Assembly (NCBI GenBank): GCA_021797675.1
Contig: JAJZZH010000131.1
Location: 1 to 33,359, forward strand
From: Bacillota bacterium
GTDB taxonomy: Bacteria > Bacillota > Sulfobacillia > Sulfobacillales > Sulfobacillaceae
DNA length: 33,359 bases
Direction of reading: 5' to 3'
Shown here one piece after another: positions 255-26,441 of this stretch (position 1 is its first letter; each line of letters opens with the position of its first letter). A program made the position numbers and the translations under genes. The notes under the pieces are model-generated. The model was not told the DNA's origin. It searched no databases and saw only the letters and a list, made by a program, of their open reading frames with translations.

Positions 255-379
255 AGAAACCGGAGGAGCGGTAGGCTGGCAAAGAACCCATGGCTGTGGA
301 TACCGCAAATTTATGTATTTGTTCATCGGCTGTGGACTGGTCGGCCGAGCAGTACAGAAAAATTGCAGATATAGCAACA

Positions 380-651
380 GGCAATGACCGGGAAGAGTAC
401 GCGGAAAGGTCAGGCTTCAGAGAGACGGCCGGACGGTGTGAGGCCGTAGCCTTGGTCTCCGGGGAATGGGCCCGTGAGCTACCAACCGAAATTTCAGTAG
501 GCTTGGTCGGAGTCTTCCGCCGTTAACCAGGAAGGCGATATCGGACCGTGGCAGACGTTCCCGTATCGGTTAAGTGAGGCCGTTATCGGTCTAAGTGGGG
601 TGGCACCGCGGAGAACTACCTTCGTCCCTTGGGGAAGAAGGTTATTTTTTT
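380..651 (+). promoter_or_regulatory. T-box riboswitch, tRNA-Trp specific, upstream of trpE
   Basis: This leader RNA binds uncharged tRNA and controls read-through into trpE. Stem I begins near 382 with the AATGACCGGGAAGAGTA-type sequence. The apical AG-bulge/GNUG-type region follows, with CAGAGAGACGGCCGG near 418. The specifier region GGGAA-TGG-GCCCGTGAGC gives codon TGG (Trp) at 467-469. The T-box proper, GGGGTGGCACCGCGG, lies at 597-611. Its TGGC bulge would pair with a tRNA end GCCA, matching the G discriminator of bacterial tRNA-Trp. A terminator hairpin follows at 614-651. The specifier identity, the bulge base and the downstream trp genes all agree. Confidence 0.93.
614..651 (+). terminator. 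T-box intrinsic terminator of the trp leader
   Basis: ACCTTCGTCCC (618-628) pairs with GGGGAAGAAGGT (631-642), followed by TTATTTTTTT ending at 651. The left arm overlaps the 3' side of the T-box, as expected for the terminator/antiterminator switch. The trpE ribosome site starts at 652. Confidence 0.85.
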
Positions 652-20242: not shown

Positions 20243-21196
20243 ATGGCAGGTCCGAAGGATTACTACAAGATTTTGCAAATTGACCCGCATGCGGATGAAA
20301 AGACGATTAAGCGCGCATACCGCAAGCTTGCCCGCCAGTATCACCCGGACGCGGGGGGCAAGGGCAACGAAGAACGCTTCAAGGAAATTAACGAAGCGTA
20401 TCAAGTGCTGTCCAATCCGCAAAAACGGGTGGAGTATGATCGTTTGCGCATAGGCTATGCGAATCGCGCCTCCCAGAGCTGGGGCCCCGGCTTTCGGCGT
20501 GTGCGCACCGAACAGACGCGCTCCAAGGACGATACAGATGATTGGGCGAGTTTGTTCGAAGACCTTTTTGGGGCGGGCGGGTGGACGTCAACCACCGGGA
20601 CGGCGACGACCGGATCGGCCCAAGTTCCCGAGCATCAGGTCTCCATCGGGCTGGAAGACGTGGCCCGGGGAAGTCAGGTCACCTTGACGGTGGAGAGCTT
20701 GGAACCGTGTCCCAACTGCCGGGGAACCAGCCGGGAATGCCCGCGGTGCGGGGGCATGGGGAGTATTGCCACCCCCAAAACTTTTACGGTAAAAATTCCG
20801 CCCGGGGTGCCTGACGGCGCCACGTTGCGAGTCGGTGAGCACGCTCGCCTGCGGGTGACGGTTCGTGATCATCCGCGATTCGTTCGCCAAGGCAACGACT
20901 TGCGGGGCCGATTGCGGGTCGCGGTGCCCTTGGCCGCGATCGGCGGCGAGATTGCGTTTAAGCCCCTCGTGGGTGAGCAAGTGTCGGTGAAGATTCCATC
21001 GCACACCAATGCTGGCAAGGTGTTGCGGCTTCGCGGATTGGGGTTGCCCGCAAGGGGCAAGAACGTGCGCGGGGATCTCTTGCTTGAGGTCGAACTGATG
21101 TTTCCGGAGCCATTTCGTCCAGAAGACGACCGTCTATACCAGCAGTTGCTGAAGGGACACCATGATACCGGGGGTGAAATTTATGCGCCTCGATAA
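20243..21196 (+). CDS. dnaJ: DnaJ-family co-chaperone with a single zinc site
   Basis: This co-chaperone stimulates the DnaK ATPase. The product is 317 aa from ATG 20243 (GGGGAG at 20231-20236); the open frame upstream to 20162 overlaps dnaK. The J domain is at residues 5-70 with the HPD motif in QYHPDAGG. A Gly/Ser/Thr-rich linker follows. The central region has only CPNC (Cys156, Cys159) and CPRCGGMG (Cys166, Cys169), that is two CxxC motifs instead of the four of classical DnaJ. The C-terminal beta domains ([28 protein letters not shown]) are complete. It is intermediate between DnaJ and CbpA types. Its 3' end overlaps clpB by 14 bp. Confidence 0.92.
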
Positions 21197-23762
21197 ATTT
21201 ACCGTCAAGTCCCAGGAGGCGTTGGCCCAGGCGCAGGACCTGGGGCGCCGCGAAAACCATCAGGCCATCGGGTCAGCCCACCTGTTGATGAGCCTGTTGG
21301 AGCAAAAGGAGGGGATTACGCGGCCGATCTTGGAACGGTTGGGGGTGCCCTTGGGCCCGCTAGAGGAGGCATGCCGGCGGGAAATCTCGCGGCAGCCTTC
21401 GGTCCAGGGGGCACCGACGGGGTCCTACATGAGTCCCGAACTCAGCCGGGTGTTGGACCGGGCCGACGAGGAAAGCCAAGCTCTGAACGACGAGTTCATC
21501 TCCACGGAGCATCTGTTGCTGGCCATGGTCTCCGAGGCTGACTCGGTAGGCGGTCGCCTGCTCCAGCAACAGGGCGCCACGCGCAACGGCCTCTTGCAGG
21601 CCTTGAAGAGCGTACGCGGCAACGCGCGGGTAACCGATCCCAGCCCGGAAGACAAATACCAGGCCCTGTCGCGTTACACCCAAGATCTTACCGCCTTGGC
21701 TCGGCACGGTAAGCTCGATCCCGTCATCGGGCGGGACGAGGAGATTCGCCGGGTGATTCAGGTGTTGTCGCGGAGGACGAAAAATAATCCGGTGCTGATT
21801 GGTGAACCGGGAGTGGGCAAGACAGCAATTGTGGAAGGATTAGCCCAGCGCATCGTGGGCAACGACGTGCCCACCAGCCTCAAGGACAAGCGGGTGTTGG
21901 CGCTCGATATCGGGGCCTTGGTGGCTGGCAGCAAATATCGCGGGGAGTTTGAGGACCGATTAAAAGCCGTATTAAAGGAAATCCAAGGGGCGGCCGGAGG
22001 CGTCGTACTTTTCATCGACGAACTCCACACCTTGGTCGGCGCGGGCAATGCCGAGGGCTCGGTGGACGCGGCGAACTTACTGAAACCGGCCCTGGCCCGC
22101 GGAGAGTTAAAAGCTGTCGGGGCGACTACGCTTAACGAATATCACAAATATATCGAAAAGGATGCCGCCTTGGAGCGCCGATTCCAGCCCATCTACGTAG
22201 GCGAGCCGTCGGTCGAGGACACCATTGCCATTTTGCGAGGATTGCGCGAACGCTATGAGGTCCACCACGGAGTTCGCATCCGCGACGGTGCGCTGGTGGC
22301 GGCGGCTGTCCTCAGCCACCGCTATATCGCCGACCGCTTTCTACCGGACAAAGCCATCGATTTGGTGGACGAGGCGGCTTCCCATCTGCGGGTCGAGATG
22401 GACTCACTACCGGAAGAACTGGACGAACTTGAGCGTCGGCGATTGCAATTGGAGATTGAGCGCCAAGCACTGAGCAAAGAGGACGACCCGGAGTCATCCC
22501 AGCGGCTGGAACGCGTGCAACAGGAGCTGGCCGAGCTCGGCGAACGGCGCGACGCGCTGATGACTCGTTGGGAACGGGAGAAATCGCTCGTGCAGCGCGT
22601 CGGTGAATTAAAGGCGGCGATTGAAGACGCGCGCACCCGCGAAGCGCAGGCGGAGCGGGAAGGCGATCTGGCCAAGGCCGCGGAGTTGCGGTACGGTACC
22701 TTGCTCAGCTTGCAAAAGGAATTGCCGGTGGCCCAGGCCGAAGTTGAGCGGTTGGAAGCGGAAGCCAACGGGCGACTTTTGCGCGAAGAGGTCGACGAAG
22801 AGGACATTGCCGCCGTAGTGGCGAAATGGACCGGGGTGCCCGTACATCGGTTGCTAGAAGGGGAACGGCAAAAGTTGACCCATATGGAAGAGCGTCTCGG
22901 CCAACGGGTGGTGGGTCAGGAGGAGGCCATTGCAGCGGTTGCCAACGCCGTCCGGCGCTCCCGCGCAGGCCTTTCGGATCCTAAACGGCCGCTGGGGTCC
23001 TTCCTGTTTCTCGGCCCGACCGGCGTAGGCAAGACGGAACTGGCCAAAGCCTTGGCCGAATTTTTGTTTGACGACGAGAACGCGCTGGTGCGCATTGACA
23101 TGTCGGAGTATATGGAGCGCCATGCGGTTGCCCGCCTGGTCGGCGCACCGCCGGGATACGTGGGCTACGAGGAAGGCGGACAATTGACCGAGGCCGTCAG
23201 GCGCCGCCCGTATTCCGTGATTTTGCTCGACGAAATGGAAAAGGCCCATCCCGAAGTGTTCAACATTTTACTGCAAACCTTGGACGATGGTCGATTGACC
23301 GACGGACAAGGTCGTGTCGTCGACTTTCGCAACACGGTCATCATTATGACGTCGAACCTGGGCAGCGACATTATTCTGGAAGAGTCGGACCATGCCCGCC
23401 GCCAGGCCTTGGTGCAGTCCCTTTTGCGGGAAACCTTTCGTCCAGAGTTTCTCAACCGCATCGACGAAGTGGTCGTCTTCTTGCGTCTGACTGCTGAGGA
23501 ATTGGGTCAGATCGTTCGCTTACAGCTGGAAGAACTGACGGAACGCCTGAAAGAACACCACATCCAACTGGCGGTAACCGATGCCGCGCTGAAGTACTTG
23601 GGCGAGCGAGGCTATGACCCTCAGTTTGGTGCCAGACCCCTAAAACGCCTGATCCAGCGCGCGGTGCAGGATTCCCTGGCTATGCGGTGGTTGAACGGGG
23701 ACATCCCGGAGGGCAGCACGGTGACGGTGGACGCCGATCAGAAGGGAATCATAATCCGTTGA
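21183..23762 (+). CDS. clpB: ATP-dependent disaggregase ClpB
   Basis: This hexameric AAA+ machine extracts proteins from aggregates together with DnaK/DnaJ. The product is 859 aa. The Clp N domain covers about 1-145. NBD1 has Walker A GEPGVGKT (207-214) and Walker [11 protein letters not shown]. The coiled-coil middle domain (about 400-520) distinguishes ClpB from ClpA/C. NBD2 has Walker A GPTGVGKT (611-618) and [19 protein letters not shown] 21162 is an in-frame alternative, but [14 protein letters not shown] from 21183, with GGGGGTGA upstream, is the family N-terminus. Co-transcription with hspR and dnaK fits the HspR regulon of actinobacteria. Confidence 0.97.
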
Positions 23763-23814
23763 CTGGACTTCGCCGCGCGGCCTCCCGGTTGAAAATCTCT
23801 TCCGCGGTGGCCGG

Positions 23815-24312
23815 GTAGACCGGAGGAATTTCACCTCCAGTCCCCCACAGATTCCGGACGTGAACCTCTCAGCTCATCCGGCTCGTGCAAACCTTTCCTC
23901 GGCGGCATTGCCGCCGCCGGCCACCGTGAGAACCACCGGACCTCTCCGAAGGTTGGCCAGGGTTTCGTTGAGTTCACCCATCCTCTTCGCTCCACACGCA
24001 TTACACGTGCTTCGTCACTCATACGGGATGGTCCGCCCCTATTCGATTCGTCGCGGCTTTCTCCTTTCGTGCGCTATCCTTGTAGGGCTTTCGCTTCGCA
24101 TACCCGGACAGGTTCCCACGTTCCACGTAGTGCGGCTCTGTCGCCGACGCGTCGGGGTTGCAGTTCTCCCCTTTTTTCCCACCCGCCACCTTTGACCTAC
24201 GCGGATGATTGACGATGGCCGAGTGCAATCCTGCCGGCCTGTCTTCGGCTTGCGGAATCGCGCCGACGAGCGACATCCCTTGCTGGTCCGGCGAATCCGG
24301 CCGTCCGCACAC
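23815..24312 (-). mobile_element. group II intron without ORF, reverse strand
   Basis: On the reverse strand, domain V (23884 to 23850) reads GAGCCGGATGAGC-TGAGAG-GTTCACGTCCGGAATC in pieces. That is a 35-nt hairpin with the catalytic AGC near its 5' end. Domain VI follows (GACTGGAGG...CCTCCGGTC) and the intron end CTAC at 23818-23815. Upstream, TGGAACGTGGGAACC and ATGCGAAGCGAAAGCC resemble conserved domain I segments. A GTGTG (consensus GUGYG) at 24312-24308 is a possible 5' end, giving about 498 nt. No reverse transcriptase is encoded, so splicing or mobility would need a protein in trans. The 3' end is well supported, the 5' end only tentatively. Confidence 0.7.
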
Positions 24313-24327
24313 CGAAGGCCGGATTCG
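24292..24327. repeat. 11-bp inverted repeat at the proposed intron 5' end
   Basis: CGAATCCGGCC (24292-24302) and GGCCGGATTCG (24317-24327) are perfect complements with a 14-bp loop that contains the proposed GTGTG intron start. It may be a domain I stem spanning the junction or a pre-existing hairpin used as target; some group II introns insert next to hairpins. Confidence 0.5.
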
Positions 24328-24393
24328 GGCGGCACGGGTATTGCCCAGGCCGTTTGCGTGAATACTAGCGAGAAGAAACCCAGACGGTAAACG

Positions 24394-24993
24394 GTGGGAT
24401 GCAGATTGCGGCGGCTGGTTGGTCTCATAAGTGGCATGCTGGTCCTATGGGCGGGAGGGAGTTCAGCGTTCGCTGTCCACCCCGATCCGCCACCCTGGGT
24501 TCCCTTGGCTACGGGTAACAAAGCCCCCCGGTTTGTCTTGACCACGCTGACCGGGGGCAGTTGGTCCCTGGCGGCTGCCCATGGGCACGTGATCTGGCTG
24601 ATATTCCTCACTTCCTGGTGTTCGTGGTGCGGCGCTCAGGCGCGTTGGCTGGTTGACGCAGGGAAGCGCAGTCCTCACCCGCCAACCATCGTGGTGGTCG
24701 ACGAAAGCGAATCGCGGTGGCGGGCGGAGTACGGGCTGGAGACCGCGCACGCTTGGCCGGCGGCGGTGCCGATCGTCCTCGATCAGCAGGGGGAGGTGGC
24801 GCGCCGCTACGGGGTGCAGGCGTATCCCACTTCTTACTTCATCGCGGCCAACGGAACCATTCGCGGGGTTTATCTGGGTCCGATTTTGCGCTGGCGGCTG
24901 CTTACCCCGTATCTGCATCGCGCAGGCTGGCCCGCTGACGCTCAAATTAGGCGCGACCAGCGAAAGCCGGCCAAGCGCAACGCGATGAGGTAA
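24394..24993 (+). CDS. exported thioredoxin-like (TlpA/ResA-type) protein
   Basis: The product is 199 aa from GTG 24394. Residues 5-27 form a signal peptide or membrane anchor (Arg-rich start, hydrophobic core, AFA near 25-27). The thioredoxin fold then shows GNKAPRFVLTTLTGG, the redox motif CSWC (Cys76, Cys79) and a cis-Pro segment YPTSYFI. Such proteins reduce or exchange disulfides outside the membrane, for example in cytochrome c maturation; the substrate is not evident. No strong ribosome site is seen before GTG 24394, and TTG 24406 or ATG 24436 are alternatives. The last 52 bp overlap the 3' end of the convergent spoVB gene. Confidence 0.8.
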   Translation: MGCRLRRLVGLISGMLVLWAGGSSAFAVHPDPPPWVPLATGNKAPRFVLTTLTGGSWSLAAAHGHVIWLIFLTSWCSWCGAQARWLVDAGKRSPHPPTIVVVDESESRWRAEYGLETAHAWPAAVPIVLDQQGEVARRYGVQAYPTSYFIAANGTIRGVYLGPILRWRLLTPYLHRAGWPADAQIRRDQRKPAKRNAMR

Positions 24994-26441
24994 AGACCGC
25001 CGGCAAGGCCTAGTCCGGCAGCCAAGTTGAAGGAGCGACTGAAATGCTGGATGAGCGCCCAATGCTGCCAGAGCGGGACGGCCAACAGCAGGGGAACGGT
25101 AGCGACGGCAGGCTTGCGCCAGATTTGCGTCCATTGTAGGCGGATGCCGGTCAGCCGCTCGGTCGCCATCGCATTGAGCCACCATGATATGAAAAAACCC
25201 GCGGCTAGCGCCGCCGACACGCCTGCGGGAGACCCGAATACCAGGATGATGGCGACTTCCACCGCGCTCGCAATCAAGTCGTTCTTGAGCGGCAGGTCGG
25301 TGCGGCCGAGTCCACGCAAGATCCCCGAGAATGCAATGTCAAAGTACAGGAAGAAGGCGCCTAGGGCTAGGGGAGTGAATACCGTCGGTGGCAGTCGGGT
25401 GCGGAAGATCCAATCGTCCAGCGCGGTGCCCATTAACAACATGATCACGGTCACGGGCACGGTCAGGTACGCCGTGGCGGACAGACTTTCGGTAATCAAA
25501 CGGGTGACTTGAAGACGGTCCTGACGAGCGTCGGCTTGAGCTATGGCCGGAATGAGATTGGTCGAGAGCGACACGGTGAGGGCGGTGGGAAAGAGGATGA
25601 GGGGCAAGGCCATACCAGTCAGCTTTCCGAAAAAGGCCACCGCGACGACTTCACTCAAGCCAAAACGGCGGAGCTGTCGGGGAATCAAAGCCGCTTCTGC
25701 CACACCGACCATTGACCCGAGCAGTCGACCAAACATGATGGGCAGCGATAGCTTGAGGATGGTGCGAGGGTATCCCGTGGACGGTGGACGGAGGGAACGG
25801 GGGTTCGCGGCCTCGCGACGGCGCCAGCGATAGAAACCCAGGGCGAGGATGGCCAAACTGATTCCTTCGCCAACAGAGATCAGGGTGGTCGCAACGCCTA
25901 GGCGATAGGATAGGAGGTGGTTGGTCGACCAATTTAACAGTTCCCAGATGATGAGGACGCGTACCACTTGCTCGACCACCTGGGCAATCGAGGGGATTTC
26001 CATTTGCTGACGTCCCAAAAAGAATCCGCGCAAAACGGCAGAAAACGCGATCGCAAGAAGAGCCGGAGTCAAAAGCGCTAGCAGCGGGCCTAAGCGACTG
26101 TCATGGTATAGCTGCATCGCGATGGGCCGTGCAGCTAGCAACAAGATAGCGATAATGGGCACGCTGATGGCCAAAATGATGAACTCTGCCGCGCGTAACC
26201 AGGGCATGGGATCTCTGCGGTCGTCGGCGACGATTTGTGAGATAGCGACCGGAGTGCCGGCTACCGAGAGGGTGACCAGCGCAATGAAAAGCGGGAAGAG
26301 CATTTGATAGAGTCCCAATCCCTCGGCTCCCAGGAATCGGGCCAAGAGCACCCGGTAGACCATCCCCAGGCTGCGGGAAATCATCGCCGCCCCTGTCAGG
26401 GTGAGCGTCCCCGCCCAAATTGAGCGCCTTCGTGATGGCAT
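24942..26441 (-). CDS. spoVB: SpoVB-type polysaccharide flippase (MATE/MOP superfamily)
   Basis: This integral membrane protein of 499 aa has about 14 hydrophobic segments. SpoVB proteins are needed for spore cortex synthesis, probably flipping lipid-linked peptidoglycan precursor. The N-terminus reads WAGTLTLTGAAMISRSLGMVYRVLLARFLGAEGLGLYQM, quoted here by its ends, as in the family. SVAGTPVAISQIVA and LRGFFLGRQQM are further family blocks. The frame is open to 26507, but ATG 26441 is preceded on the reverse strand by GGGAGGGG. It diverges from the spore protease gene gpr, which supports a sporulation role. Other MOP flippases cannot be fully excluded. Confidence 0.85.
   Translation of the reverse strand: MPSRRRSIWAGTLTLTGAAMISRSLGMVYRVLLARFLGAEGLGLYQMLFPLFIALVTLSVAGTPVAISQIVADDRRDPMPWLRAAEFIILAISVPIIAILLLAARPIAMQLYHDSRLGPLLALLTPALLAIAFSAVLRGFFLGRQQMEIPSIAQVVEQVVRVLIIWELLNWSTNHLLSYRLGVATTLISVGEGISLAILALGFYRWRRREAANPRSLRPPSTGYPRTILKLSLPIMFGRLLGSMVGVAEAALIPRQLRRFGLSEVVAVAFFGKLTGMALPLILFPTALTVSLSTNLIPAIAQADARQDRLQVTRLITESLSATAYLTVPVTVIMLLMGTALDDWIFRTRLPPTVFTPLALGAFFLYFDIAFSGILRGLGRTDLPLKNDLIASAVEVAIILVFGSPAGVSAALAAGFFISWWLNAMATERLTGIRLQWTQIWRKPAVATVPLLLAVPLWQHWALIQHFSRSFNLAAGLGLAGGLYLIALRLAGFRWSRLI

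What the first reader, a model, noticed from the sequence alone, without database searches (positions are those of the whole stretch)
23815..24312. ORF-less group II intron of about 500 nt
Domains V and VI and the 3' splice end are clear on the reverse strand, domain I-like segments are present, and a GTGTG start lies at 24312. There is no reverse transcriptase, so it would depend on a protein from another intron. It sits in a gene-free spot downstream of clpB.
Basis: partly seen in the sequence, partly recalled or inferred. Interest (0 to 1): 0.58.

Follow-up and report, generated by a model that had tools for sequence, protein, structure and literature searches.

The report
Broken remnant of ORF-less intron
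The spot downstream of clpB holds the back half of a small self-splicing-type (group II) intron that has lost its front half and sits next to a scrap of a transposon gene, so it looks like ordinary mobile-element debris and not a working intron.

Summary
The proposed 500-nt intron is not there. A profile of nine relatives (633 columns) matches the window only at 24129-23811, profile positions 313-633 (273 bits, E 2e-83). The front half, with the Rfam domain I segment found in 10 of 17 relative loci, is absent even at E<=10. The "GTGTG start" at 24312 and most of the "domain I-like" stretch are not recognisable intron: 24277-24169 reads in frame as a scrap of an IS607-type tnpB gene. A sister species has the same clpB-redoxin neighbourhood without either piece. 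So this is a 5'-truncated, almost surely inactive copy of a real ORF-less intron lineage, about 630 nt long when complete, found in related genomes of the Sulfobacillus clade. Truncated copies among mobile DNA are the common fate of bacterial group II introns (PMC4424553, passages read). The parent lineage shows two oddities worth a separate look: a UUGYG 5' end and an altered domain V strand.

The parts
23811..24129 (-). 3' half of an ORF-less group II intron (profile positions 313-633 of 633); 5' half missing
   Evidence: nhmmer profile of nine relatives, 273.5 bits, E 2e-83
23850..23884 (-). domain V with AGC triad and GAGA loop; 3' strand reads GGAATC in place of the usual GGTTC
   Evidence: RF00029 match 23886-23810; comparison of relatives; exact ends counted by hand
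23813..23845 (-). domain VI hairpin with an unpaired A on its 3' side, the place of the branch point in group II introns
   Evidence: RF00029 match; consensus fold; exact ends counted by hand
   Evidence: DNA match to G021:C114; translated match 18 of 46 identical, E 4e-5 in a 2.5-kb target; profile 6.4 bits
24308..24312 (-).
   Evidence: lies 183 nt upstream of the first intron-like base
21162..23762 (+). clpB, the gene on one side
   Evidence: Pfam
24394..24993 (+). redoxin-like gene on the other side
   Evidence: Pfam AhpC-TSA / Redoxin

Best explanation
A dead, 5'-truncated copy of an ORF-less group II intron, lying beside a scrap of an IS607-type tnpB gene in the clpB-redoxin intergenic region. 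Shown: only the 3' half of the lineage consensus is present; the sister genome lacks both pieces at this place. Inferred: the ancestor was an intron of about 630 nt, moved in trans by the reverse transcriptase of a related intron. Its 5' half was lost either because target-primed reverse transcription, which starts at the 3' end, stopped early, or by a later deletion that also cut the tnpB relic. The remnant cannot splice in cis and most likely does nothing today.
For: Profile match confined to positions 313-633. Rfam domain I family RF01999 in 10 of 17 relative loci, absent here at E<=10. Upstream stretch matches tnpB in DNA (E 4.5e-9 in 34 family genomes, next hits 0.003 and above) and in frame. 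Syntenic sister locus without intron profile match. No copy of this lineage that I saw in the own genome is intact: C97 lacks part of domain V, C28 lacks domain VI, C167 starts at profile position 440. [quoted passage not shown]
Against: The 319-nt remnant is well preserved: domain V still scores above the Rfam gathering score and the consensus pairs near it are mostly kept, so it may be recent or, less likely, under selection. The tnpB assignment rests on one good DNA match; the protein profile score is low (6.4 bits) and a plasmid search with the translation found nothing. No 3' continuation of tnpB could be shown, so the order of events is open.
Confidence: 0.88

Rival explanations
1. One reading: a complete ORF-less group II intron of about 500 nt (24312-23811) with a diverged, shortened domain I, spliced and moved by a protein supplied in trans.
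For: GTGTG at 24312 resembles the usual 5' end, and two other relatives (L069, L077) start GTGTG. One short ORF-less relative of about 550 nt exists (L077, profile hits 1022-1569).
Against: No profile match upstream of 24129; no Rfam D1-D4 match at E<=10; 24277-24169 matches tnpB in frame; no better fold than shuffles upstream; the 181-nt stretch 24315-24135 has no intron match in 34 family genomes.
Confidence: 0.05
2. The remnant is the 3' piece of a split, trans-splicing intron whose 5' half is encoded elsewhere in the genome.
For: Domain V/VI are well preserved; trans-splicing group II introns exist in organelles (PMC4424553, passages).
Against: In the own genome the 5' half matches only C28, C97 (both with their own 3' part) and a 49-nt piece on C180. 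The clpB stop is 48 nt downstream on the other strand, so there is no evident 3' exon gene.
Confidence: 0.02
3. A circularly permuted group II ribozyme, with domains V/VI in front of domain I.
For: Such RNAs exist in bacteria and appear to hold no ORF (PMC8637638, passages read).
Against: The order here is the usual one for the part that is present (profile 313-633 in order), and no D1-D4 family matches downstream of domain VI (23700-24450 at E<=10).
Confidence: 0.01

Closest known systems
Truncated / inactivated bacterial group II intron copies (PMC4424553, passages read)
   Same: Partial copy, 5' part missing, other mobile DNA next to it, outside housekeeping genes.
   Different: Nothing of note.
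ORF-less group II introns of Thermosynechococcus elongatus, TeI3 family (PMC2882425, passages read)
   Same: Intron lineage without ORF in genomes that hold related RT-encoding introns; some copies nested in other group II introns.
   Different: The window copy is truncated. The lineage here has a UUGYG 5' end (7 members read) and a changed domain V strand; I did not compare it with TeI3 sequences.
IS607-type transposon with tnpA (serine recombinase, MerR-type domain) and tnpB, G021:C114
   Same: Window 24277-24169 matches its tnpB in DNA and reading frame.
   Different: Only about 46 residues are left; no tnpA was seen in the ORF list around it.

Membership tests
Group II intron | Domain V | tested here: met
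   RF00029, 44.0 bits, above gathering score
Group II intron | Domain VI with unpaired branch-point A | tested here: met
   RF00029 alignment and consensus fold
Group II intron | Domain I | tested here: not met
   profile positions 1-312 absent; no D1-D4 family at E<=10
Group II intron | 5' end GUGYG | tested here: not met
   GTGTG at 24312 lies outside the homologous part, which starts at 24129
Group II intron | EBS/IBS pairing with the 5' exon | not testable with these tools
   the part of domain I that would carry it is missing
Group II intron | 3' end ...AY | tested here: inconclusive
   reads CTACCCGG; the exact 3' end of the lineage was not settled
ORF-less intron lineage described here | No ORF between the domain III-like part and domain V | tested here: met
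   profile 313-633 is continuous in the window
ORF-less intron lineage described here | Full length of about 630 nt with RF01999 domain I segment | tested here: not met
   319 nt and no RF01999
IS607-type tnpB (upstream scrap) | DNA and in-frame similarity to TnpB | tested here: met
   weak in the profile, 6.4 bits
Circularly permuted group II ribozyme | Domain I downstream of domain VI | tested here: not met
   no D1-D4 family in 23700-24450

The most novel reading that the evidence does not exclude
[quoted passage not shown] The window copy would be one of its fossils.
Probability: 0.25. Interest if true: 0.45.

Novelty: new member of a known kind. Interest (0 to 1): 0.15.

Why it matters
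For the window it matters little: it corrects a 500-nt intron call to a 319-nt remnant plus a tnpB scrap. The parent lineage may matter more. The review PMC4424553 says (passage read) that few ORF-less bacterial introns should have been overlooked unless their domain V is unlike the known ones; this lineage has an unusual domain V strand and occurs in several related genomes.

Tried and rejected
A diverged domain I in 24312-24130: tried by multiple alignment, by a profile of nine relatives and by Rfam at E<=10; none supported it. In the multiple alignment I at first saw short resemblances to the relatives' 5' part by eye; the profile did not recover them and they lie inside the tnpB-like frame.

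The 3' flank (23810-23775) as a continuation of tnpB: the only match is not significant, and one search shows no second stretch. Left open.

A free 5' half in the own genome: not found. Plasmid search with the intron: 96 of 72,556 records, none covering 80% of the query, the 20 records listed all matching only the 3' end of the query (domain V/VI). Plasmid search with the tnpB-like translation: no match.

The helix next to domain V in the parent lineage was only seen in the consensus fold: of its seven pairs (columns 15-18 and 20-22 with 265-272) one shows a change on both sides, in one sequence. Too thin to claim.

One relative (G001:C249) sits in an ORF whose two sides are in the same frame under some boundary choices; more than one phasing fits and a distant homologue points to another 3' end, so the exact splice points were not settled.

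Full report
What is there. Rfam RF00029 (group II domains V and VI) matches the window once, at 23886-23810 on the minus strand, 44.0 bits against a gathering score of 40, E 1.2e-5. Domain V has the AGC triad and a GAGA loop, and domain VI an unpaired A near its 3' end. The stretch lies between clpB (+, stop at 23762) and a redoxin-like gene (+, from 24394). It contains no reverse transcriptase. The own genome has 13 RF00029 matches, 12 over the cut-off, and 9 stretches with reverse transcriptase similarity.

How far the intron goes. A DNA search of the own genome (4.06 Mb, 242 contigs) with 23700-24450 found relatives on C97, C28 and C167 and short matches on four more contigs. A search of 201 genomes (the own one included) found matches in 35, many of them only to domain V. 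In the relatives the similarity to the window begins near 24127, while their own introns go on for about 300 nt upstream. I cut nine relatives from a 5' motif chosen from the alignment to the end of domain VI (553 to 637 nt; G003:C172 has an internal deletion, C97 and C28 are damaged) and built a profile of 633 columns. It matches the window at 24129-23811 only, positions 313-633, 273.5 bits, E 2e-83; the next hits in the window have E 1.2 or more. The Rfam domain I family RF01999 is at or above its gathering score in 10 of the 17 relative loci given and absent in window 23700-24450 at E<=10. The 319-nt part folds better than most shuffles (z -2.46), the 183 nt upstream of it does not (z -0.44). 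So the copy is the 3' half of an intron of about 630 nt.

What the upstream part is. Window 24277-24185 matches the tnpB gene of an IS607-type element in genome G021 (L094): 73% over 101 columns, E 3e-12 pairwise, E 4.5e-9 in a search of 34 family genomes, where the next hits have E 0.003 or more. The reading frame agrees: 18 of 46 positions identical, E 4e-5 in a 2.5-kb target. A profile of ten tnpB proteins gives 6.4 bits, E 0.001, for that frame of the window and negative scores for the others reported. L094 carries a serine recombinase with a MerR-type domain next to tnpB, which is why I call it IS607-type (the name is from established knowledge). The protein score is modest and a plasmid search found nothing, so I hold this at about 85%.

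When it arrived. In G001, the only other genome of the same genus in the set, clpB and the redoxin gene are neighbours too: window 23600-23762 and 24337-25000 align at 80% and 72%, with 487 nt between them. Those 487 nt hold no match to the intron profile at E<=10 and no tnpB-like frame, but other unrelated sequence. So the region turns over quickly, and the intron and tnpB pieces are particular to the window's lineage or were lost in G001. I looked at this one genome only.

How it most likely came about. Shown: a sharp 5' border inside the intron and tnpB-like sequence upstream. Inferred: either reverse transcription from the 3' end stopped early during insertion, or a later deletion removed the 5' half and part of the tnpB relic. 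These could not be told apart, since the 3' flank could not be assigned to tnpB. Without domain I and a 5' splice site the copy cannot splice in cis. The 5' half of the lineage hits only C28, C97 and a 49-nt piece on C180 in the own genome, so there is no sign of a free 5' half that could act in trans.

The parent lineage. Eight copies run from profile position 19 or lower to 607 or higher: L079, L080, L081, L086, L087, L091, L031 and L032 (other rows of that table are second fetches of the same places). They hold no ORF of intron-protein kind, since the profile runs through without a large gap. Four records that hold the exact domain V/VI pattern are named Bacillota or Sulfobacillus metagenome bins, hence 'Sulfobacillus clade'. 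Related RT-encoding introns match the profile in two pieces with the ORF between, for example C187 of the own genome, whose reverse transcriptase is split into 219 and 221 aa in different frames. C42 has a reverse transcriptase with YADD and a maturase domain that runs off the contig end, 287 aa seen. A helper protein may thus exist in this genome, but I did not see a complete one.

Two oddities of the lineage. First, among 37 distinct relatives with a readable end of domain V, 17 have the usual GTTCTG strand and 20 do not; 13 of the 20 read GAATCTGT and seven are other variants, one of them with part of domain V rearranged. The window copy reads GAATCTGT. One relative without room for an ORF (L077) has the usual strand, so loss of the ORF alone does not explain the change. 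Second, seven members start TTGYG while two other relatives start GTGTG (L069, L077); G000:C97 and G001:C209 are damaged at that end. These could mean altered or lost splicing; nothing here decides it.

Nesting. In L086 and L087 domain VI is followed at once by a different domain I family (RF02001, 120 and 90 bits), and in L032 the truncated end is followed by RF02005 (60.5 bits). That is the arrangement expected of introns inserted in other introns, described in Thermosynechococcus (PMC2882425, passages read) and reviewed in PMC4424553 (passages read).

Comparison with what is known. [quoted passage not shown] the window feature fits. A search for 'group II intron' with 'Sulfobacillus' found two papers (listing only), and one for domain V, catalytic triad and ORF-less found two (listing only). 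So I found no description of this lineage in the open library, which lacks most subscription papers.

Verdict. Domains V/VI are right, the extent and the 5' end are wrong, and the thing is an ordinary, inactive remnant: interest 0.15.

Noticed in passing
37 relatives (rows) and 5' ends of L081, L086, L087, L080, L091, L032, L088: Parent lineage has a changed domain V 3' strand (20 of 37 relatives not GTTCTG; 13 of these GAATCTGT) and a TTGYG 5' end; meaning for splicing unknown.
   Followed up: partly
L086 1965-1727 (-), L087 1908-1673 (-), L032 1790-1962 (+): The lineage's domain V/VI is followed at once by domain I of a different group II intron family: likely introns nested in introns.
   Followed up: partly
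L079, L083, L089, L031, L088, L082, L084, L085 just after domain VI: 8 of 17 relatives share a conserved 3' flank (..GTACGGAATTTTA..) although their 5' flanks differ: part of an outer intron, or a 3' extension of the intron.
   Followed up: no
L080 437-546 and 1172-1300 (+): One full-length copy sits in an IS66-like ORF whose two sides can be in frame; the exact splice points could be settled with an uninterrupted homologue.
   Followed up: partly
L035 1931-3252 (-): Reverse transcriptase of the related intron on contig C187 is split between two frames, so that intron is probably inactive too.
   Followed up: partly
window 375-632 (+): T-box leader, RF00230, 117 bits, overlapping the start of a 498-aa ORF at 600-2096.
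   Followed up: no
L128 about 1370-1456: The sister genome's clpB-redoxin gap carries a short tandem repeat (..GGTTACCTGTGACCACGCATACCC.. three times) absent from the window.
   Followed up: no
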